Assembly (NCBI RefSeq): GCF_025153525.1
Contig: NZ_JANZNR010000008.1
Coordinates: 1-64,000 of the forward strand
Origin: Psychroserpens sp. SPM9
GTDB taxonomy: Bacteria > Bacteroidota > Bacteroidia > Flavobacteriales > Flavobacteriaceae
Reading direction: 5' to 3'
DNA: 64,000 nucleotides
Part shown: piece by piece, positions 27,328 to 40,260 of the stretch
How the letters are laid out: the number at the start of each line of letters is the position of its first letter
How positions within the stretch are numbered: position 1 is the stretch's first letter
The notes under the pieces: model-generated
Seen by the model: only the letters and a program-made list of their open reading frames with translations
Database searches by the model: none
Told to the model about the DNA's origin: nothing
Made by a program: the position numbers and the translations under genes

Positions 27328-27352
27328 GACAAAAGAAATCTTTTGTCGCAGT

Positions 27353-27368
27353 CCCCACGAAAGTGGGG
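27353..27368 (+). repeat. GAAA-loop hairpin, copy 1
   Basis: CCCCAC-GAAA-GTGGGG followed by ATC, 39 bases before the HTH start codon. It is the first of three related hairpins, each in front of a gene. Another perfect 8-bp hairpin (GACAAAAG with AAAT loop, 27328-27347) lies just before it. Confidence 0.7.
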
Positions 27369-27407
27369 ATCTTTTGATTTTAATTTATTAATCTAAAATC
27401 GTTTACT

Positions 27408-27686
27408 ATGGCAGCAACAATTATTACTACAGAAGATCTTCGAGAGTTCAAATTAGAATTGTTAGAAGATATCAAAGCAATCATTAACCATCAATCAGGT
27501 TTTGCACCAAAAAAGTGGCTAAAGTCACCAGAAGTTCGCGACTTATTAAGTATCTCACCAGGAACCTTACAAAATCTTCGTATCAATGGCACTTTACCTT
27601 ATACAAAAGTAGGTGGTGTTATCTATTACGACTACGAAGAAATTCTAAAAGTAATGGAAGAAAATCGCATTCATAACAAATTCTAG
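27408..27686 (+). CDS. Helix-turn-helix, excisionase-like protein
   Basis: A 92-residue protein with a short N-terminal coiled helix and an AlpA/MerR-type winged HTH (WLKSPEVRDLLSISPGTLQNLRINGTLPYTKVGG). Small proteins of this type in Bacteroidota integrative elements act as excisionase or control protein. The upstream region shares a 16-bp motif with the integrase promoter, which supports co-control of excision. Confidence 0.85.
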   Translation: MAATIITTEDLREFKLELLEDIKAIINHQSGFAPKKWLKSPEVRDLLSISPGTLQNLRINGTLPYTKVGGVIYYDYEEILKVMEENRIHNKF

Positions 27687-27704
27687 TTCCCACGAAAGTG
27701 GGAA
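27687..27704 (+). repeat. GAAA-loop hairpin, copy 2
   Basis: TTCCCAC-GAAA-GTGGGAA, starting directly after the HTH stop codon and ending 9 bases before the next ATG. The stem differs from copy 1 by changes that keep pairing. Confidence 0.7.
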
Positions 27705-27713
27705 TCTTTCCAT

Positions 27714-29146: not shown

Positions 29147-30502
29147 TTGTTAAAATTCTTATCTTTTCAGATTAAAAAATCATCCATAAGCGTGATATCG
29201 AGCCTACAAATAAAAAGACAATTAAATTCCATCAGTACATCGGTATTGAACGGTGACAGTTTTGATAGAAATGATTATGCAAGAAAAATCTTGAATTATC
29301 CAGCTATGATGGTTCCAAGTGTTCAAGAGCCAATTATTAAAACATTAATTGACGCTTTACCTGAAAATTCTACAATGATAGATCCTTTTATGGGTGCTTC
29401 TAATACCATCATTACTTCAATGCGTTATGGGATCAATTCATTTGGTCAAGATATAAACCCATTATCGCTATTAATAAGTCAAGTAAAAACGCATATTTAT
29501 TCAGAAGATCTAAAAATTAGTTTTTCTAATTTTAAAAAACGTTTAAGTAGAGCAAGGTCAGAAAAAATAGACGTTAGCTTTAAAAATATTGATAAATGGT
29601 TTAAAAGTGAAGTTCAGATTGAATTGTCACAGATAAGAAGACTAATAATTCAAGAAGAAGATTTATTTATAAGGAAATTTTATTGGGTTACACTAGCGGA
29701 AGTAATACGCCTAACAAATAACGATAGAACTTCGACTTTTAAAATGCACGTTAGAACCCAGGAGGAAATTGATAATAGAAATTTGTCGCCAAAGGAATAC
29801 TTTGAAAAAATATGTAAAAGAAGTATCAATGATATTTTTGAGGTGAAAAAAAAATTAATTGAAAACGACCTTCTCGAAAATGATAAATATAAATATAATG
29901 TTGAAGTTACATGGGGAGATTCTAAAGAGAAATTAAATACTGATAAAAAGTTTAATCTTCTTGTAACATCACCGCCGTACGGTGACAATCATACCACAGT
30001 TACTTATGGTCAATTTTCATATTTACCGTTACAATGGATCCCTGTAGAAGATATTGATGAAAACATATCAATGAACTATTTAGATGTTATCCAAGAAATT
30101 GATTCAAGAAGTCTAGGAGGAAAGAATATTTCTGATTATTCGACAATAGAAAAGGAATTGTTTAGAAAATCCAAAACGTTAAAAAGGTTTTTCAAAAACT
30201 TTAATTCTGAAGAAAGACTTAAAGCAAGGAAAGTCGTTAGTTTTATTTATGATTTAGACACTACAATTGATAATGTTTTGGAAAAGATGATGCCTAATTC
30301 GTTTTATGCTTGGACTGTCGGTAATAGAAATGTCAATAATAAAGAAGTTGAGAATGATAAAATATTAACCGAATTATTGGCTACAAAAGGTATAAAAAAT
30401 TTTACGGATTTAGAAAGGGAAATTCTATCTAAAAGAATGCCAGATAAAAACAATTTTTCTAAAACTATGAGTAAAGAAAAAATCCTAATCTACAATAGCT
30501 AA
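29147..30502 (+). CDS. DNA methyltransferase (N4/N6 type)
   Basis: About 451 residues from a TTG start; no ATG occurs earlier than ~residue 53. The S-adenosylmethionine motif I is MIDPFMGAS (Asp ~79) and the catalytic motif IV is TSPPYGD (Ser275-Tyr278), placing it among amino-methyltransferases that modify adenine N6 or cytosine N4. Motif I precedes motif IV by ~195 residues, long enough for a target-recognition domain in between. It is 6 bases upstream of the GHKL gene, which suggests one operon. No restriction endonuclease is adjacent, so it may act within a non-classical defence system. Confidence 0.85.
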   Translation: MLKFLSFQIKKSSISVISSLQIKRQLNSISTSVLNGDSFDRNDYARKILNYPAMMVPSVQEPIIKTLIDALPENSTMIDPFMGASNTIITSMRYGINSFGQDINPLSLLISQVKTHIYSEDLKISFSNFKKRLSRARSEKIDVSFKNIDKWFKSEVQIELSQIRRLIIQEEDLFIRKFYWVTLAEVIRLTNNDRTSTFKMHVRTQEEIDNRNLSPKEYFEKICKRSINDIFEVKKKLIENDLLENDKYKYNVEVTWGDSKEKLNTDKKFNLLVTSPPYGDNHTTVTYGQFSYLPLQWIPVEDIDENISMNYLDVIQEIDSRSLGGKNISDYSTIEKELFRKSKTLKRFFKNFNSEERLKARKVVSFIYDLDTTIDNVLEKMMPNSFYAWTVGNRNVNNKEVENDKILTELLATKGIKNFTDLEREILSKRMPDKNNFSKTMSKEKILIYNS

Positions 30503-30508
30503 TAACTA

Positions 30509-32965
30509 ATGAGTGATGATTACCATTTTGATATAACCCCTCATATCGTAAAACAATTAGGGGAGCAATTAGTTTCTGATGAAGTTACAGCGCTACTTGA
30601 GTTAATAAAAAATTCTTACGATGCTGATGCTAACTATGTTTCGATTGACATAAATACCAAAGGTCAATATACCAATGAAAATTTAATATTTCCAAAGCAT
30701 AAAGGTTACATAGCTGTAGAAGATGATGGTTTTGGTATGAATGAAGAAACCATACTTAAGTCATGGTTGTTGATTTCATACTCAAAAAAGCGTGAGCAAA
30801 AAGCAAAAAACATAAAAACACCAGGAGGGAGAACGCCATTAGGGGAAAAAGGTTTAGGAAGATTAAGTACTCAACGACTGGCTGATATATGTGAAATTCT
30901 TACAAACACCAACAAAAAGGATGGGACACATTTAGCTTTTAATTGGAAAGATTTTGAAAAAGAAGAAAGGCTTTCCGATGTTGAAATACAATCAAAAGAG
31001 TATCATCCCCAAATAAAAAACGGCACAAAGTTAATTCTAACAAACCTTAATCACGCTGAAGTATGGGAAGGTAAAAATCTAGAAAGGTTTAAAGGGTTTG
31101 TATCTCAAATAATTTCGCCTTACAAAGAAAATAGACCATTTGATGTTTACCTTACTGTTAATAACGAAGTCATTGATTTAGAAAAAATTAATGATGATTT
31201 AAGAGATTTAGCGATTTCTAAATTTGAATTTTATTTTGATGATAAAAGAGTTAAAATTAGTGGTAAAACCAAACTAACAAAATTTATAGGGAATAAGAAA
31301 AATGACTTTGAAAACTTCTTACAATCAGATAACGGGAAAAAATTTTATGAATTCTTAAAAAAGAGTGAATATGATGATATTATTCTGTCAAAAAATAAAA
31401 ACTTCTTTATCGAATTAGATAATGTATTTACACTAGATGAAATTTCTGGTCTAGAAGTCTTTGATGGTGAAATAGCTAATCCAGGAAGTTTTGAAGGTGT
31501 TATAGATGAATTTAGTTTCGATAACTGGTTAACTTATGATGAAAGAGTAAATGATATTTTCAATAGCTTATCCAATTATAGAACTTTTGCGCAAAGTCAA
31601 TCAGGTATTAAATTGTTTAGAAATGGCTTTGCTATAAAGCCTTTTGGTATAAATGGTCAAGACTGGCTCAAACTAGCAGATTCACAAACTAATGCATCAT
31701 CGTATTACCCATTAAGACCTAAAAATGTTATTGGATATTTTGCTATTGATGAAGGGGTTAATAAAAATCTAAAGGATAAAACTGATAGAGAAGGTTTAAT
31801 TTCAAATCCTTATTCAAGGAATTTTTTCGTTTTAGCTTTTTTTATAGTTAGACAAATAAATAGTTATCAAGAAAGAATAAGAAGAGCTTACGTTGATTTT
31901 CTAAAGGTTTACAAGACAAAAAATAGTGGTATAACTACTGTTACACAGTCTTTTAACCATATAAGTGCTATCGTTGATTCTTCAACAACATTATCTGATG
32001 AATTAAAAGATACTGAATCTGTAATTGATGAATTGGTTAATGAGCAAACAACTATAGTTAGTGATGTAAAGGATAATCCACTTTTTGCTTCAGAAGAAAA
32101 TAAAGCAAATATTAAAAAGGCACAAAAATTATTAGATAAATTAAAGCGTATTCAAGCAGCTTTTTCTAAAGTTGAAAAAGTAATAAAGAAAACTGAAAAC
32201 TTAAATGAAGTAATTGATATACTAGAACCCAAAATACAAACATTAGAAGAACAACTAAATAACTTTTCAGAATTGGCAGGTTTAGGTATAACGGCAGAAT
32301 CAATTAGTCATGAATTTTTTAATATAGCTGACAACTTAAATGAAAGAGCTTTATTTTATAAACAAAAACTAAAGGACAAGCAATTAAAAGAATCGGATAG
32401 TTTTATTTTGTTGGAATATATTAACGAAACCGTAAATGGGTTAAAGATTCAATTACGACATCTTGACCCAGCATTAAAATACCAAAGAGAAAAGAAAAGT
32501 CAATTTAGTTTATCGAAATACTTTTTAGAGGAAAAACAGTACTATAATAAAAGGTTTATGTCTAAAGGTATCCTTATTGATATTGAGACAAAAGATGACT
32601 TCTCTTTAAATATAAACAAGGGTAAGCTAACACAAATTATAGATAATATCTTGATTAATTCCGAATACTGGCTTAATGAGAAAAAACTTAAAGAAAAACA
32701 ATTTGAACCAAAAATAAATATTGTTATCGAACAGCCTTGGCTCTATATATCAGATAACGGATTTGGCATCCCTAAAAATATTGAAAAACAAATATTTGAA
32801 CCTTTTGTATCTACAAAGCCAAAGGGTGAAGGAAGAGGGTTAGGCCTTTTTATAGTAATGCAACTATTAGACTCAATGGGTTGTGCAATTTCACTCGAAC
32901 CTAAAAGAAATGAGTATGACAAAAAGTTCATTCTTGCTATTAACTTAAGTAACGTAATGATTTAG
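30509..32965 (+). CDS. Double-GHKL ATPase / histidine-kinase-like protein
   Basis: An 818-residue protein with two ATP-binding GHKL modules. The N-terminal one is MORC/Hsp90-like: [11 protein letters not shown] (31-41), EDDGFGM (71-77), GEKGLGRLS (112-120). The C-terminal one is histidine-kinase-like: H-box-like AESISHEFF (His601), N-box [10 protein letters not shown] (~708), ISDNGFGIP (~745), [19 protein letters not shown] (~760-780). A coiled-coil region (470-585) links them. It lacks TM segments. The stop is 1 base before the next gene, whose product is receiver-like, which suggests signalling between the two. Confidence 0.85.
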
Positions 32966-32966
32966 T

Positions 32967-34775
32967 ATGAGTGAAAAGATTACAATAAGTTTAAAGGACG
33001 AAAATCTTTGTATAATTCCCAAAGACGACCCTAATTTAACAAGTACAGCTGTAAACGCTATAAATACTTTATTAGAGAAAGAAGGAATTGAAAAGGTATT
33101 ATATATTGATGACAAGTTTGATATTGAAGCTCAAAAAGGGTTTTTCATTGGAATGATGAAACAAGTCAAAAGTTCTGGAGATTTTCCCAATGAAAATATT
33201 TTTGAAGAAGATGTTAATTGGAATTTGCCGGATGCTGCTTTTGATAAAATAATATTGAAATTATGGGAAGAAGCAGATTCCAAAAAAGATTTAATACACG
33301 CGGTTTCTAATATTATCGGAGATAATGAAAGTTCTAATATAATTCCTGCACTAGAGTTTAAAGATTATTTTTCGGGTGACAATGTAATTTTATTGACACC
33401 TGAAGAATGGATTGAAAAAAAGAAAGAGATTTTAGATGCTGTATCTGGAGATAGTAAGGTCTTATGCCTATTTGACTTTGAATTAGAAAACTTTACTGGC
33501 CCAAATAATGAAAAAAATGGAATTCATCTTATTAAAGAACTTATAGAAAGTGGTTATTCTGAAAAAGTCATTTGTGGAATTTTTTCGCATAAATACACGG
33601 AAGAGCAAGAAGATACATTCAGAAAAGAATATCGTAAAGAATTTGACTTAAAGAAAAAATATTTTTGTACTATTTCTAAAAGTAGATTTGCTCATGACCC
33701 GCAATTAAGTGGTTTTGCTGAAGGAATTAAGTATATTTTGATAACTAGATATATTGAAGACCTAAAATCTAAATCAATAAAAATACTTAAAGAAAGTAAC
33801 GAAAAATCTATTAAGGATTTTAAAAAAATATCACCTAAAACATTTAATCAAATTATTCAAAAATCATCATATAAAGAAGGTGTTTGGGAGGTTGAATCAC
33901 TTTTTCGCTTAAATACCATTTTGAATTCGGATGCTAATTTGTCATCTTTATTAGATGAAGAAGTGAGAAAAAGCTTTGACAGTTCAGTATTAAGTGTTAG
34001 AGGAATTGATAGTGTTGAAACTGGCTATAGTAGAAAGAAAAAAAGCCCTGAATCCTTAAATATTAGAGAAAAAGAATTATATATAAATCAACAATATTTA
34101 AACAATCTCAATTTACCTATTGCTAATGGTGATATTTTTGAAATTGGGACAAAAAAATATATTTTAGCTGTACAACCTTGTAATCTTGCTTTGAGAAGCA
34201 ATGGTACAAGAACAAGATCTTATAACAAAGGTATATTAATTCCATTAATTGATATTGATATAAAAAGGTTCAATTCTAATACTTCCTATAAATTATATCG
34301 CACAGACAGTCATGATAAAATTTTATGTGCTCTTTTTTCAGAGTATCAAAATATTAATCTTGATATACTCGATTTGACAGTCTTTAATTCAGAGAGTTCA
34401 GCAATTATGGACATGAAAAATAACAATGTTGATAGTAATAATGTTATCCAAGAATCATGGAAAAAAAGATATAAAGCAATTCACAAGAACTTTAAAAGTG
34501 AGGAGAAAGTTTATCAGGCTTACAATACTATCAAACAAAAACTAGAAGGTAAATTCACCAGTGAATTCAATTTATTAAATTCCTTTTTTGATAATCCACT
34601 TACAATTAAGAAGTTTAAATTAAAAGATATTGAAGTTTATGATTATGAAAATAGAATTTTTAACTTTCAATTAAAACGCATAAAAAGATATAAAGACCCT
34701 TACTCTACTGATTTATTACATAGTTTCATGTCTTATCTTTCTAGAAACGGTTTTGATATTGATTTTACTTCTTAA
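32967..34775 (+). CDS. Receiver-like protein with unknown C-terminal domain
   Basis: A 602-residue protein. Residues ~40-250 contain the elements of a response-regulator receiver: VLYIDDKF (Asp48/Asp49), LFDFEL (Asp170), FSHK (Ser207) and ISKSR (Lys238). The spacing is stretched by inserts of more than 100 residues. The rest (250-602) is unlike anything I recognise, with helical segments and a basic stretch, and could be the effector. It is the third gene of the methyltransferase-GHKL cassette; its end overlaps the convergent LysR gene by 4 bases. Confidence 0.65.
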   Translation: MSEKITISLKDENLCIIPKDDPNLTSTAVNAINTLLEKEGIEKVLYIDDKFDIEAQKGFFIGMMKQVKSSGDFPNENIFEEDVNWNLPDAAFDKIILKLWEEADSKKDLIHAVSNIIGDNESSNIIPALEFKDYFSGDNVILLTPEEWIEKKKEILDAVSGDSKVLCLFDFELENFTGPNNEKNGIHLIKELIESGYSEKVICGIFSHKYTEEQEDTFRKEYRKEFDLKKKYFCTISKSRFAHDPQLSGFAEGIKYILITRYIEDLKSKSIKILKESNEKSIKDFKKISPKTFNQIIQKSSYKEGVWEVESLFRLNTILNSDANLSSLLDEEVRKSFDSSVLSVRGIDSVETGYSRKKKSPESLNIREKELYINQQYLNNLNLPIANGDIFEIGTKKYILAVQPCNLALRSNGTRTRSYNKGILIPLIDIDIKRFNSNTSYKLYRTDSHDKILCALFSEYQNINLDILDLTVFNSESSAIMDMKNNNVDSNNVIQESWKKRYKAIHKNFKSEEKVYQAYNTIKQKLEGKFTSEFNLLNSFFDNPLTIKKFKLKDIEVYDYENRIFNFQLKRIKRYKDPYSTDLLHSFMSYLSRNGFDIDFTS

Positions 34776-37034: not shown

Positions 37035-39107
37035 ATGAGTTTTAAATTATTAGCAATTAGGCCACTTGAAAGGTGTGGTATAAAGTTTTTAAAAAACTTA
37101 CAAAAGAATAGAATCTATAAAATGTATAATGACTATACATTCTATTCAAATGGTAGCGTTATTGATGATTTTAATACAGAAATACCAGAATATTTATCAA
37201 TTGATAAAATAGAATCCAACAATACACTACCCAAAGATTTTTTTGGATCTAAAGTCAACGTATCTGCGATTATAGGGAAAAACGGGAGTGGAAAAAGTAG
37301 TCTTATCAATTTGTTTGTGGCTGCAATTAACCAGATGTCCATTAAGCTTCAATCTCAAGAAATGTTGGAAACCACTGCTAATCTTATTCCAACAGGAAAA
37401 GATGATGATAGCAAAATACATTGTGAATTTTATTACCAATTAGAAAACGGATATTATATTGTTAAAATAGAAGATGGAGATTTTGAATTCAAAACTTTAC
37501 AAGATGAAGTTAACAACTTTGATTTCGAGAAATTCTTTTACTCAAACGTCATAAATTATTCTATATATGGTTTCAATTCATGGGAGCTAGGAGATTGGAT
37601 AGATAATTTATTTCATAAAAATGACTCATATCAAATACCGATAGTAATAAATCCAAAAAGAGAAAGGAAGGATGAAGGAAAAGCAGGTATTATAGATATC
37701 AATAATGAAAACTATTTGTTACAACAACGCCTTTTATCTGTTGTTCTAATGAATAAAGATTTCGAAGTAACTCAAAACCTTACTGTTAATTCTTTAAAGC
37801 TTGATTATAAAAAATCAAAATCATTTTTTTCATATTCTAATGACATTTATCAAGATGGTAATGACTTTACAGAGGAAGAGGATATAAGAAATAATTTTTA
37901 TAGTATTCTACAATCTAAAAAAGGAATAAGCTTTAGGCCAAATAATAATAACCATCCATCTGCACTTTATTTTGATTTAGATGAAGTGCTATTAGTTTTT
38001 AAAGAAAGGTTAGACATAAATAGGACTTCTATTCCGAAAGATATTTTGTGTAGATTAGATATTTATATTCTATATAAGATAATAAGTATTTGCGAAAAGT
38101 ATGTTAGCTATAATAATTTTAGAATAGATGATGGTGGTGAGAAATATAAACGCTATTATATAAATATTAACGGTTTTATCGATAAGTTAATAGATAGTCG
38201 TAGTCATATTATTTTAAAGCTAAAACAAGTTGTCAATTTTATTAAAAACTACGAATCTACTTGGAAAGAGTTTCTCAATCAAAATTCAACTACAAAAATC
38301 TCAATAAAAGAATTGTCAAATGAATTAATTGATAAATCAAATTCCAATTTGCCACTTATAGAATTGTTACCACCTGCTATTTTTGAAACAAGATTATTTT
38401 CAAAGAATAATATTGATTTGCTAGACAGTATTAGTTCTGGTGAAATGCAATTGGTACATTCTACGAGTTCTGTCATATACCATTTAAGCAATTTAAATTC
38501 AGTAGAAAAAGATGATATGTTAGTCAAGTATCAGTATGTAAATCTTGTATTAGATGAAATTGAACTCTACTTTCATCCAGAGTATCAAAGAAAGTTTTTA
38601 AAAAGATTATTAGACGATATTAACAGAGCGAAATTAAAAGCAATTAAAGGAATAAATATTCTAATAATTTCACATTCACCATTTGTTTTATCAGATATTC
38701 CAAGTCAAAATGTGCTTTTTCTAGAAGTAAATGAATCCAAAGAATCAATCCCTAAAAAATATGGCTCTGATAATACCTTTGCTGAAAATGTGCACGAAAT
38801 TTTATCAAATGGCTTTTTCTTAAATAATACAATGGGTGAATTTGCAAGATCAAAGATTCAAGATTTTTTAGCTTTTGAGAAAGAAGGCAATTTGGATTCA
38901 AAAAAATTAAAATATAATGAGAAAAGAACTGATTTTGTTAAGCTTATTGATCTTGTTGGTGAAAAGTATATTAGTAATATTCTCAAAAATCATCTAGAAG
39001 TTTTAGATAAAAAATATTTAACAGGTTATAATCGTATTGAAAAAATTCAACAAGAAATTGAAAAGCTTCAATCAGAAAAGAGGAGATTAGAGGATGAGGA
39101 AAATTAA
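37035..39107 (+). CDS. AAA/ABC-type ATPase, Septu PtuA-like
   Basis: A 690-residue ATPase of the AAA_21/overcoming-lysogenization-defect style: Walker A GKNGSGKSS (81-89), ABC signature SSGEMQ (~467), Walker B LVLDEIELYFHP (~503-514), H-loop ISHSP (~545). The middle is long and helical. It overlaps the HNH gene by 14 bases. A pair of ATPase plus HNH nuclease is the hallmark of Septu (PtuA-PtuB) phage defence, in which the ATPase senses and licenses the nuclease. Confidence 0.85.
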   Translation: MSFKLLAIRPLERCGIKFLKNLQKNRIYKMYNDYTFYSNGSVIDDFNTEIPEYLSIDKIESNNTLPKDFFGSKVNVSAIIGKNGSGKSSLINLFVAAINQMSIKLQSQEMLETTANLIPTGKDDDSKIHCEFYYQLENGYYIVKIEDGDFEFKTLQDEVNNFDFEKFFYSNVINYSIYGFNSWELGDWIDNLFHKNDSYQIPIVINPKRERKDEGKAGIIDINNENYLLQQRLLSVVLMNKDFEVTQNLTVNSLKLDYKKSKSFFSYSNDIYQDGNDFTEEEDIRNNFYSILQSKKGISFRPNNNNHPSALYFDLDEVLLVFKERLDINRTSIPKDILCRLDIYILYKIISICEKYVSYNNFRIDDGGEKYKRYYININGFIDKLIDSRSHIILKLKQVVNFIKNYESTWKEFLNQNSTTKISIKELSNELIDKSNSNLPLIELLPPAIFETRLFSKNNIDLLDSISSGEMQLVHSTSSVIYHLSNLNSVEKDDMLVKYQYVNLVLDEIELYFHPEYQRKFLKRLLDDINRAKLKAIKGINILIISHSPFVLSDIPSQNVLFLEVNESKESIPKKYGSDNTFAENVHEILSNGFFLNNTMGEFARSKIQDFLAFEKEGNLDSKKLKYNEKRTDFVKLIDLVGEKYISNILKNHLEVLDKKYLTGYNRIEKIQQEIEKLQSEKRRLEDEEN

Positions 39108-40260
39108 ATACTATAAAGATTTCAAAATTTTTGATGCGTTTAAAGAAGAATACAAAAAATCCATATTAGACAGTAGTTTACTTAATAAAGCTGAAGCACA
39201 AAAGCTTTTAAAAGATATTGGAGTTAAATATTCTTTACAGGAAATCTTGGTGCTACCAATTGAAGAACTTATAAAATTACCAGAATTAAGTTCTTTAAAT
39301 GTATTTAAAGGTTTAGATAAAAAAGCGACACAATTAGAAAAGAAAAGGATTAAAGATATATTCAACTATAAAGAATATCAGACTAACATTTTATCAAATT
39401 TCTTTATGAAGCATGGTAAAGAGCTAGAGATTAAAACATGCTGTTATTGTAATATAGATTTTGTAAACCCTTATATCCCTTTTTCAAACGATTATATGGA
39501 TTTTTACCATTTTATCAATAGTTGTACAAAAGCTGATCTATTAAAAATAAATAATATTGGTTCTAACCGAGCAGATATTATTATAAGTAAGTATCAAGGA
39601 AAGATTAAGAAATATGAAGATATTGAAAATTTAATTGATGATACCAGGATTAAAAACATCTTAAAAAATCTCACAGATAAATCCGGTAATTTAAAAATCG
39701 ATAATTCTTTAATAAAAAACAAAAATCACTTCACATTAGATCATGTTTTGCCTCAAAGTCTTTACCCATATCTTTCACTATGCTTGTTCAATCTAACACC
39801 AAGTTGTTATTCTTGTAACTCAAAATTAAAAAGAGATGCTAAAATATACAGTAGTATTTCAGAAATAAAATCTATTTCGCCAACAGGTGTGGATGGTGTG
39901 TTTGATTTGAATTTCAAACTTTATTTTAAAGATGGTTTTGGCAAAAACAATCTTCCAGATTCAGCTAATGAATACTCAATCAAAATCGATAGTACACATA
40001 AAGAGTATATAGAAAGATTAAATCTTCAAGGAAGATATAATTTCCATAAGGACATTTCCTTTGAATTAATTGATAAACGTAAAACATACTCTGATTCACA
40101 GATTCAAGAAATTGTAACTTTATTTGGTGAAAAAAATATTGAAATTAATGAGATAGAATTGAAGAAACAGATTTTTGGTTCAGTAATTTTTGAAGAAGAT
40201 TCAAATGCTCAATTTGAAAAATACAAGAAAGATATTGCAAAGCAGTTAGATATAATTTAA
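39094..40260 (+). CDS. HNH nuclease with HhH-like insert, Septu PtuB-like
   Basis: A 388-residue HNH endonuclease. Zinc cysteines are CCYCN (116-120) and CYSCN (238-242), with the catalytic block LDHVLPQSLYP (His217) between them. About 95 residues separate the first zinc knuckle and the HNH block. This insert reads LLKINNIGSNRADIIISKY followed by YEDIENLI, which resembles a helix-hairpin-helix DNA-binding motif. The gene is translationally coupled to the ATPase. Probable nuclease effector of the pair. Confidence 0.82.
   Translation: MRKIKYYKDFKIFDAFKEEYKKSILDSSLLNKAEAQKLLKDIGVKYSLQEILVLPIEELIKLPELSSLNVFKGLDKKATQLEKKRIKDIFNYKEYQTNILSNFFMKHGKELEIKTCCYCNIDFVNPYIPFSNDYMDFYHFINSCTKADLLKINNIGSNRADIIISKYQGKIKKYEDIENLIDDTRIKNILKNLTDKSGNLKIDNSLIKNKNHFTLDHVLPQSLYPYLSLCLFNLTPSCYSCNSKLKRDAKIYSSISEIKSISPTGVDGVFDLNFKLYFKDGFGKNNLPDSANEYSIKIDSTHKEYIERLNLQGRYNFHKDISFELIDKRKTYSDSQIQEIVTLFGEKNIEINEIELKKQIFGSVIFEEDSNAQFEKYKKDIAKQLDII

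What the first reader, a model, noticed from the sequence alone, without database searches (positions are those of the whole stretch)
29147..34775. Methyltransferase, double-GHKL ATPase and receiver-like protein: candidate new defence/signalling system
Three genes with gaps of 6 and 1 bases sit in a mobile element next to a Septu-like pair. The middle protein combines a MORC/Hsp90-like GHKL module with a histidine-kinase-like GHKL module and a His601 H-box. The third has receiver-like residues Asp48/49, Asp170, Ser207, Lys238, plus ~350 unexplained residues. A phosphorelay that is coupled to DNA modification would differ from classical restriction-modification and from Detocs, which uses DtcA/B/C proteins and no methyltransferase. 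This is inference from domains and position.
Basis: partly seen in the sequence, partly recalled or inferred. Interest (0 to 1): 0.85.

Follow-up and report, generated by a model that had tools for sequence, protein, structure and literature searches.

The report
Methylase-linked phosphorelay with toxin-fold output
Three neighbouring bacterial genes encode a DNA-marking enzyme, a sensor kinase and a responder whose tail is predicted to look like a toxin; the same trio recurs across many bacterial phyla and is probably an anti-virus alarm, a divergent branch of a little-studied family first described in 2021.

Summary
In detail: genes, gaps and residues are as described. Profile scans found 50 relatives. 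The kinase gene adjoins the receiver gene in 46 of 50 (3 of the other 4 start at a contig edge), and the methyltransferase is adjacent in 42 of the 43 with room to tell. His601, Asp170 and Lys238 are invariant in 41 of 41 aligned proteins, and AlphaFold2 gives a receiver fold.

Novelty needs correcting. A linked double-GHKL kinase / receiver-like pair beside restriction-modification genes was published in 2021 (PMC8011034; PF19191/PF19192). This is a divergent branch of it: PF19192 is not among the matches shown for 41 receivers, while the kinases align by profile (100%, E 4e-47).

The new lead is the "unexplained" C-terminus. It models confidently (pLDDT 89) and 46 of the 50 listed solved-structure matches are MazF/CcdB-type toxin folds (best probability 0.96, but no E-value under 0.07). 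Sequence profiles give no MazF relationship. Best reading: a methylation-linked phosphorelay controlling a toxin-fold effector, i.e. abortive-infection defence. Signal, phosphotransfer, toxicity and defence are inferred.

The parts
29147..30502 (+). DNA methyltransferase gene (probable true start GTG 29192)
   Evidence: PADLOC type II methyltransferase model PDLC03360, E 1.2e-88; conserved DPFMG and SPPY motifs in 30 aligned relatives; start codon from relatives
29381..29395 (+). motif DPFMG (residues 79-83)
   Evidence: D79, P80, G83 invariant in 30 of 30
29969..29980 (+). motif SPPY (residues 275-278)
   Evidence: S275, P277, Y278 invariant in 30 of 30; that SPPY points to N4-cytosine or N6-adenine methylation is recalled
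30509..32965 (+). double-GHKL histidine-kinase-like gene (818 aa)
   Evidence: HATPase_c_3 and HATPase_c; both in 41 of 41 relatives
30587..31012 (+). N-terminal MORC/Hsp90-like GHKL ATPase domain (residues 27-168)
   Evidence: PF13589 E 1.9e-17; NCBIfam BbrUII/HgiDII restriction enzyme model matches residues 5-188, E 5.1e-26, far under its cut-off
32309..32311 (+). codon of His601 (H-box)
   Evidence: invariant in 41 of 41, followed by E in 40 and D in 1
32624..32908 (+). C-terminal HATPase_c kinase domain (residues 706-800)
   Evidence: PF02518 E 5.1e-16
32967..34775 (+). receiver-like gene (602 aa)
   Evidence: open frame; AlphaFold2 pLDDT 86.0, pTM 0.79
33084..33701 (+). receiver (REC-like) domain, residues about 40-245, with a helical insertion after strand 1
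   Evidence: secondary structure order and residue positions; Foldseek receivers with probability 0.84-0.98 but E 0.11-0.30
33108..33113 (+). codons of Asp48 and Asp49
   Evidence: D in 40 and 39 of 41
33474..33476 (+). codon of Asp170, expected phospho-acceptor
   Evidence: invariant in 41 of 41; end of strand 3 in the model
34113..34412 (+). C-terminal barrel, residues about 383-482, MazF/CcdB-like fold predicted
   Evidence: AlphaFold2 pLDDT 88.9 for the C-terminus; 46 of 50 listed Foldseek hits are this toxin fold, E 0.073 and up
34656..34754 (+). final strand and helix of the C-terminal domain (residues 564-596)
   Evidence: model; R571 and R593 invariant in 41 of 41

Best explanation
A mobile three-gene, methylation-linked phosphorelay, most likely for anti-phage defence. 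SHOWN: a conserved, tightly packed trio (methyltransferase, double-GHKL kinase, receiver protein) with complete kinase and receiver signatures, and no constant partner nuclease gene. PREDICTED: the receiver carries a C-terminal barrel of MazF/CcdB-like toxin fold. INFERRED: the methyltransferase marks host DNA; the kinase's N-terminal MORC-like ATPase senses unmodified foreign DNA or another infection cue; the kinase autophosphorylates on His601 and passes the phosphate to Asp170; this arms the C-terminal domain, which stops growth or phage production (abortive infection). It would work like a restriction-modification system whose nuclease has been replaced by a phosphorelay and a toxin-like effector.
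For: Trio recurrence with median gaps of -1 and -4 bases. Correlated divergence of the three proteins, r 0.81, 0.91, 0.81, 0 of 999 permutations as high, 29 loci. Invariant His601, Asp170, Lys238 and ATPase residues. Receiver topology. Toxin-fold matches for 46 of 50 listed hits. The barrel is the best-conserved segment of the receiver protein (0.348 against 0.255 for the receiver core). No flanking gene family recurs in more than 4 of 54 neighbourhoods, so no dedicated nuclease. Integrases in 6 and HNH_2 in 4 of 77 flanking ORFs, with single GajA, BrxL and DrmD matches. Precedent: VcSduA, a GHKL ATPase joined to a nuclease, protects against phage (passages of PMC12137116).
Against: No Foldseek match reaches E 0.001 for either model. 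Barrel against 26 PemK proteins is at noise (0.8%), below its reversed control (2.1%); MazF catalytic residues are not shown. No phage assay, no phosphotransfer data. No random-gene control for the defence-island tally. One locus (L053) has no adjacent methyltransferase and three have it on the other strand, so coupling to methylation is not absolute.
Confidence: 0.4

Rival explanations
1. A regulatory two-component system that controls the expression or activity of a restriction-modification system, as proposed in 2021; the C-terminal barrel is a binding output, not a toxin.
For: This is the published proposal for the related family (PMC8011034); methyltransferase adjacent in 42 of 43.
Against: No constant nuclease to regulate (HNH_2 in 4 of 77 flanking ORFs); no DNA-binding domain found in the receiver; best structural matches of the C-terminus are toxins.
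Confidence: 0.25
2. A true restriction complex: the kinase-like protein is a MORC-type clamp and the kinase or receiver carries an unrecognised nuclease that cuts unmethylated DNA, with phosphorylation as a switch.
For: The N-terminus matches the BbrUII/HgiDII restriction enzyme model (E 5.1e-26, but 91 bits against a cut-off of 550) and PADLOC REase_II models (E 5.6e-16, residues 1-183); GHKL proteins are known in R-M operons (PMC2292703, passages).
Against: The restriction-enzyme match covers only the ATPase part; no nuclease domain found in any of the three proteins or by fold search of the receiver. The kinase was not folded.
Confidence: 0.2
3. An addiction (toxin-antitoxin-like) module of mobile elements: loss of the cassette lets a toxin act, stabilising the element; phage defence is secondary.
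For: Mobile genes beside it here, integrases in 6 of 77 flanking ORFs, two plasmid copies.
Against: No small antitoxin-like gene recurs beside it. The same anatomy is expected under the defence reading, so sequence separates the two poorly.
Confidence: 0.15

Closest known systems
HEF_HK / Response_reg_2 two-component-like elements (PF19191/PF19192; Bellieny-Rabelo et al. 2021, PMC8011034)
   Same: Methylase, double-GHKL soluble kinase and receiver-like protein in a row; His followed by an acidic residue; REC residues; kinase profiles align (100%, E 3.9e-47); the C-terminal barrel motif aligns (69.7%, controls 0.1-0.2%, 9 PF19192 proteins).
   Different: PF19192 not among the matches shown for 41 receivers and absent from the window's genome at E 0.001; PF19191 reaches E 0.1 in only 12 of 41 kinases. 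Methyltransferase of SPPY type here, whereas the four PF19192 regions I read have a C5 methylase by eye; the paper's figure legend lists N6/N4 methylases too.
MORC/paraMORC GHKL proteins of restriction-modification operons (Iyer et al. 2008, PMC2292703)
   Same: N-terminal GHKL ATPase beside DNA methylases.
   Different: Here a second, kinase-type GHKL with an H-box and a receiver partner; the paper does not use the words receiver, two-component or response regulator.
BbrUII/HgiDII family restriction enzymes (NF050001)
   Same: N-terminal ATPase, residues 5-188, E 5.1e-26.
   Different: 91 bits against a cut-off of 550; only the first 175 of 659 model positions match.
MazF/PemK/CcdB toxin fold
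   Same: Predicted fold of the receiver's C-terminus.
   Different: No detectable sequence relationship to PemK; fused to a receiver; no antitoxin-like gene recurs beside it.
Detocs
   Same: Phosphorelay to a defence effector (recalled, not from a call).
   Different: Detocs is recalled to have DtcA/B/C and no methyltransferase; homology not tested here.

Membership tests
HEF_HK / Response_reg_2 two-component-like system | Kinase matches PF19191 (HEF_HK) | tested here: not met
   Window kinase 13.4 bits against a cut-off of 24.1, E 0.11, and the stretch 545-589 does not include His601; 12 of 41 relatives at E 0.1 or better, best 9.8e-5
HEF_HK / Response_reg_2 two-component-like system | Receiver matches PF19192 (Response_reg_2) | tested here: not met
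   Not in the window protein; not among the 25 of 35 families shown for 41 members, and the families not shown have at most one member each by the table's order
HEF_HK / Response_reg_2 two-component-like system | HATPase_c_3 and HATPase_c in one kinase | tested here: met
   41 of 41
HEF_HK / Response_reg_2 two-component-like system | Conserved His followed by an acidic residue | tested here: met
   H601 41 of 41; next residue E in 40, D in 1
HEF_HK / Response_reg_2 two-component-like system | Receiver residues: acidic pair, phospho-acceptor Asp, Thr/Ser, Lys | tested here: met
   D48 40, D49 39, D170 41, S/T207 41, K238 41 of 41
HEF_HK / Response_reg_2 two-component-like system | Kinase and receiver genes linked, methylase upstream | tested here: met
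   46 of 50 linked; methyltransferase adjacent in 42 of 43 (39 upstream, 3 convergent downstream)
Classical type II restriction-modification | Cognate restriction endonuclease gene | tested here: not met
   No nuclease domain in the trio (REase_II hits cover only the ATPase part); no flanking family in more than 4 of 54 neighbourhoods
Two-component response regulator | (beta/alpha)5 receiver fold with catalytic residues at strand ends | tested here: met
   AlphaFold2 strands 41-47, 140-143, 164-170, 201-207, 233-237; Foldseek receivers probability up to 0.98 but E 0.11 or worse
Two-component response regulator | Match to Pfam Response_reg (PF00072) | tested here: not met
   No such match for the window protein at E 1
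MazF/PemK toxin | MazF-type barrel fold | tested here: inconclusive
   46 of 50 listed hits, best probability 0.96, but best E 0.073
MazF/PemK toxin | Sequence relationship to PemK (PF02452) | tested here: not met
   No Pfam match in the window protein; profile alignment 0.8%, reversed control 2.1%
MazF/PemK toxin | Toxic ribonuclease activity | not testable with these tools
   Needs the bench
Detocs | DtcA/DtcB/DtcC homologues | not tested
   No such label among the PADLOC hits shown for the trio, but whether that library holds Detocs models was not checked

The most novel reading that the evidence does not exclude
The receiver is a phosphorylation-gated toxin. A methyltransferase-guarded kinase keeps a MazF/CcdB-fold effector silent and arms it by phosphorelay when unmethylated (phage) DNA appears: abortive infection driven by a two-component system. 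The same output domain seems to be present in the published PF19192 proteins and in a compact third form in genome G020, so it would give a function to a whole unassigned family.
Probability: 0.3. Interest if true: 0.87.

Novelty: new variant of a known kind. Interest (0 to 1): 0.6.

Why it matters
The 2021 paper counted 664 receiver-like proteins, no tested function, and no other known domain in them (PMC8011034). A predicted toxin-type output domain, conserved more strongly than the receiver itself, turns 'some link to R-M' into a testable claim: a two-component system whose output is a toxin and whose safety catch may be DNA methylation. If true it would join phosphorelay signalling and restriction-modification in one immune device and explain why no nuclease accompanies the methyltransferase.

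Tried and rejected
Rejected: chance proximity; a constant fourth-gene nuclease (no flanking family in more than 4 of 54 neighbourhoods); simple membership in PF19192; sequence homology of the barrel to PemK (real 0.8%, reversed control 2.1%, unrelated families 0.3-0.5%, all noise). L036, a 1266-aa kinase-receiver fusion, was considered as proof of partnership, but the kinase profile ends at position 703 of 830, so HATPase_c is missing; it may be an in-frame deletion or assembly fault and is not used.

Led nowhere: PDB sequence searches with the receiver; viral-protein structure library; viral contigs with the PF19192 profile; phages; repeat search for element ends; promoter-like sites at background (59 found, 52.3 expected). 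A first script failed on a file name. The first PemK set was wrongly picked (10 ORFs, some not PemK), the second held 8 of 30 loci, the third 26 of 30. The first comparison with PF19192 receivers used 7 of 9 loci picked by a motif that lies in the compared region, a bias; repeated with all 9 and no motif filter it was stronger.

Rows left out: A2 (receivers) and A3 (kinases) each hold the window plus 40 of 50 scan loci; truncated, split, fused, remnant or near-duplicate ones were dropped (A2: L014, L015, L025, L036, L038, L040, L041, L043, L052, L056; A3: the same but with L015 in and L031 out). A7 holds the window and 29 of 42 methyltransferases of the scan loci. A9 holds 39 of 41 barrels. 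The flank tally used 77 of 180 listed ORFs and had no random control; its tables show 25 of 127 and 25 of 92 families. The Mantel test used 29 rows. ORF starts in scripts are the longest possible.
Full report
Observation. The three ORFs lie at 29147-30502, 30509-32965 and 32967-34775, with gaps of 6 and 1 bases. The first is a DNA methyltransferase (PADLOC type II model, E 1.2e-88; only a sub-threshold Pfam N6_N4_Mtase match, E 0.023). DPFMG and SPPY motifs are conserved in 30 aligned relatives; by recalled rules SPPY suggests N4-cytosine or N6-adenine methylation. Relatives suggest the start is GTG 29192. The second has an N-terminal HATPase_c_3 and a C-terminal HATPase_c. The third has no meaningful match in Pfam (best E 0.035, a phage protein, under cut-off), NCBIfam, PADLOC or PHROGs.

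Recurrence. The receiver gene occurs in 3 of 395 sampled genomes of the phylum, the window's own included: rare and patchy. Profile scans found 49 loci in the genome collection and 1 in viral contigs; the scan relies on two short motifs, so this is a lower bound. Titles name Bacteroidota, Alpha-, Beta-, Gamma- and Deltaproteobacteria, Planctomycetota, Armatimonadetes, Gemmatimonadetes, Lentisphaerae, Acidobacteria, Aminicenantes, actinobacteria and one archaeal bin; many are metagenome bins. Of these 50 loci, 46 have the kinase adjacent (one fused); 3 begin at a contig edge and 1 (L056) is a remnant. Of the 46, 39 have the methyltransferase upstream on the same strand, 3 actinobacterial ones have it convergent just downstream, 3 run off the contig and 1 (L053) has none adjacent. 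Median gaps are -1 and -4 bases. A Hymenobacter plasmid, an R. etli plasmid and genome G167 carry the same trio. Pairwise distances of the three proteins correlate (r 0.81, 0.91, 0.81; 0 of 999 permutations as high; 29 rows).

Anatomy. In 41 kinases the H-box His601 is invariant, followed by E in 40 and D in 1; N713, N717, D749, G753, G775, G777 and G779 are invariant; the N-terminal ATPase keeps E31 and N35 in 40 (the other row has a gap there) and D72, G74, G76 in 41. In 41 receivers D170 and K238 are invariant, D48 is in 40, D49 in 39 and S/T207 in 41. AlphaFold2 of the receiver protein (41-row alignment; pLDDT 86.0, pTM 0.79) puts these residues at the ends of strands 1, 3, 4 and 5 of a (beta/alpha)5 receiver with a helical insertion after strand 1. 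Foldseek ranks unrelated folds first by E-value (0.034), but the four highest probabilities among the 50 listed are receivers: 4ja2 0.98, 1m5t 0.92, 3cnb 0.84, 1zes 0.84, with E 0.11-0.30. I read this as a receiver, resting more on topology plus residues than on the search score.

The C-terminus. Modelled alone it is confident (pLDDT 88.9, pTM 0.87). Of the 50 listed PDB matches, 46 are toxins of the MazF/PemK, CcdB or ToxN kind (that these share one fold is recalled); the others are ranks 24, 43, 44 and 48. Best: B. subtilis MazF 4me7, probability 0.96, E 0.073, TM 0.51 by target. None reaches E 0.001. Profile alignment to 26 PemK proteins from the same phylum was at noise, below its reversed control. 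So the fold is suggested; relationship and catalysis are not. The barrel is the best-conserved segment (mean pairwise identity 0.348; receiver core 0.255; linker 0.258; insertion 0.164; tail 0.234), with invariant P384, G388, D389, F391, L400, Q403, C405, R410 and D469.

What is known. Bellieny-Rabelo et al. 2021 (PMC8011034; outline and parts 1-5 of 7 read) described kinase-like (PF19191) and receiver-like (PF19192) genes, 91.6% linked in 644 regions, with methylases upstream and HATPase_c_3 + HEF_HK + HATPase_c in 174 of 222 kinases. They proposed a two-component-like system tied to R-M and found no other known domain in the receivers. N6/N4 methylases are in their network legend, so the enzyme type here is not unprecedented. 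I read four PF19192 regions: each has a C5 methylase (by eye), a kinase and the receiver in a row, with Vsr- or HNH-like genes (by eye) near some. Kinase profiles of the two branches align over most of their length (100%, E 3.9e-47). Receiver profiles do not align over their full length (13.9% with 4 rows), but with 9 rows the barrel aligns at the shared GDIF...CD motif (69.7%, P 4e-5; 67.6% when the whole receiver is the query), against 0.1-0.2% for reversed and unrelated controls. With 7 rows the last helix was also picked out (21.6-33.6%). I take the branches as related; the aligned stretches are short (33-35 columns), so this is support, not proof.

A third form. A barrel-only search of 395 genomes found, besides the 3 known, one weak hit in G020 (E 1.5e-4): a C5 methylase (by eye), a 720-aa GHKL kinase, a 362-aa protein and a Vsr gene (Pfam E 2.5e-33) in a row. 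By eye the N-terminus of the 362-aa protein reads like an ordinary receiver, but Pfam gave no match at E 0.01 and the PDB none.

Surroundings. Here: RteC, excisionase-like and DnaC-like genes upstream, an integrase beside tRNA genes 12 kb away, and a PDC-M62/Septu-like pair downstream. Elsewhere, 77 flanking ORFs (of 180 listed) gave 6 integrases, 4 HNH_2, 3 DUF4238, 2 DUF499, 2 HmaC and single GajA, BrxL, DrmD and BsuBI matches. No fourth gene is constant. There was no random-gene control.

Mechanism. Best supported: a methylation-linked phosphorelay ending in a toxin-fold effector (0.40). Anatomy and recurrence are shown; sensing, phosphotransfer, toxicity and defence are inferred. Rivals: regulation of R-M (0.25), a true restriction complex with an unrecognised nuclease (0.20), an addiction module (0.15).

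Literature limits. Searches and 112 of an open-access library listed no experimental study of PF19191/PF19192 systems and no toxin-fold output for them; I judged by the listings, and most subscription papers and preprints are not held. PMC2292703 and PMC12137116 were read as passages only.

Noticed in passing
window 37035-40260: AAA ATPase plus HNH-type pair, best PADLOC models PDC-M62A (E 1.4e-41) and PDC-M62B (E 3.3e-30), weaker PtuA/PtuB matches; a second candidate defence system.
   Followed up: partly
L114:3793-8762 (genome G020): Compact form: C5 methylase (by eye), 720-aa GHKL kinase, 362-aa short receiver with the same barrel motif, Vsr.
   Followed up: partly
L036:5688-9488: 1266-aa ORF joining kinase and receiver, lacking the kinase's HATPase_c part; natural hybrid, deletion or assembly fault.
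   Followed up: partly
L026 (Kordia algicida) against window 29147-34775: Methyltransferase 82% identical, kinase 63%, receiver 43%: either the methyltransferase was exchanged or the receiver evolves fast.
   Followed up: no
window 27350-27374 and 27685-27709: Two 92% identical 25-base hairpin repeats flanking the small HTH_17 gene; the first also scores as a terminator-like site.
   Followed up: no
L004:8034-9830 (Hymenobacter monticola plasmid): The receiver protein is annotated 'cytochrome P450' in the public record, apparently a wrong name.
   Followed up: no
L052 and L056 (Hyphomicrobiales bins): C-terminal part of a receiver followed by the same downstream genes in both; in L056 the ORF has only 330 aa and no kinase beside it, so probably a remnant.
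   Followed up: partly
L014:1776-2801, L015:9846-10871, L026:9914-10975: A related 341-353 aa ORF follows the receiver gene in three loci; Pfam DUF4238 matches 3 of the 77 flanking ORFs, presumably these. Possible accessory gene.
   Followed up: no
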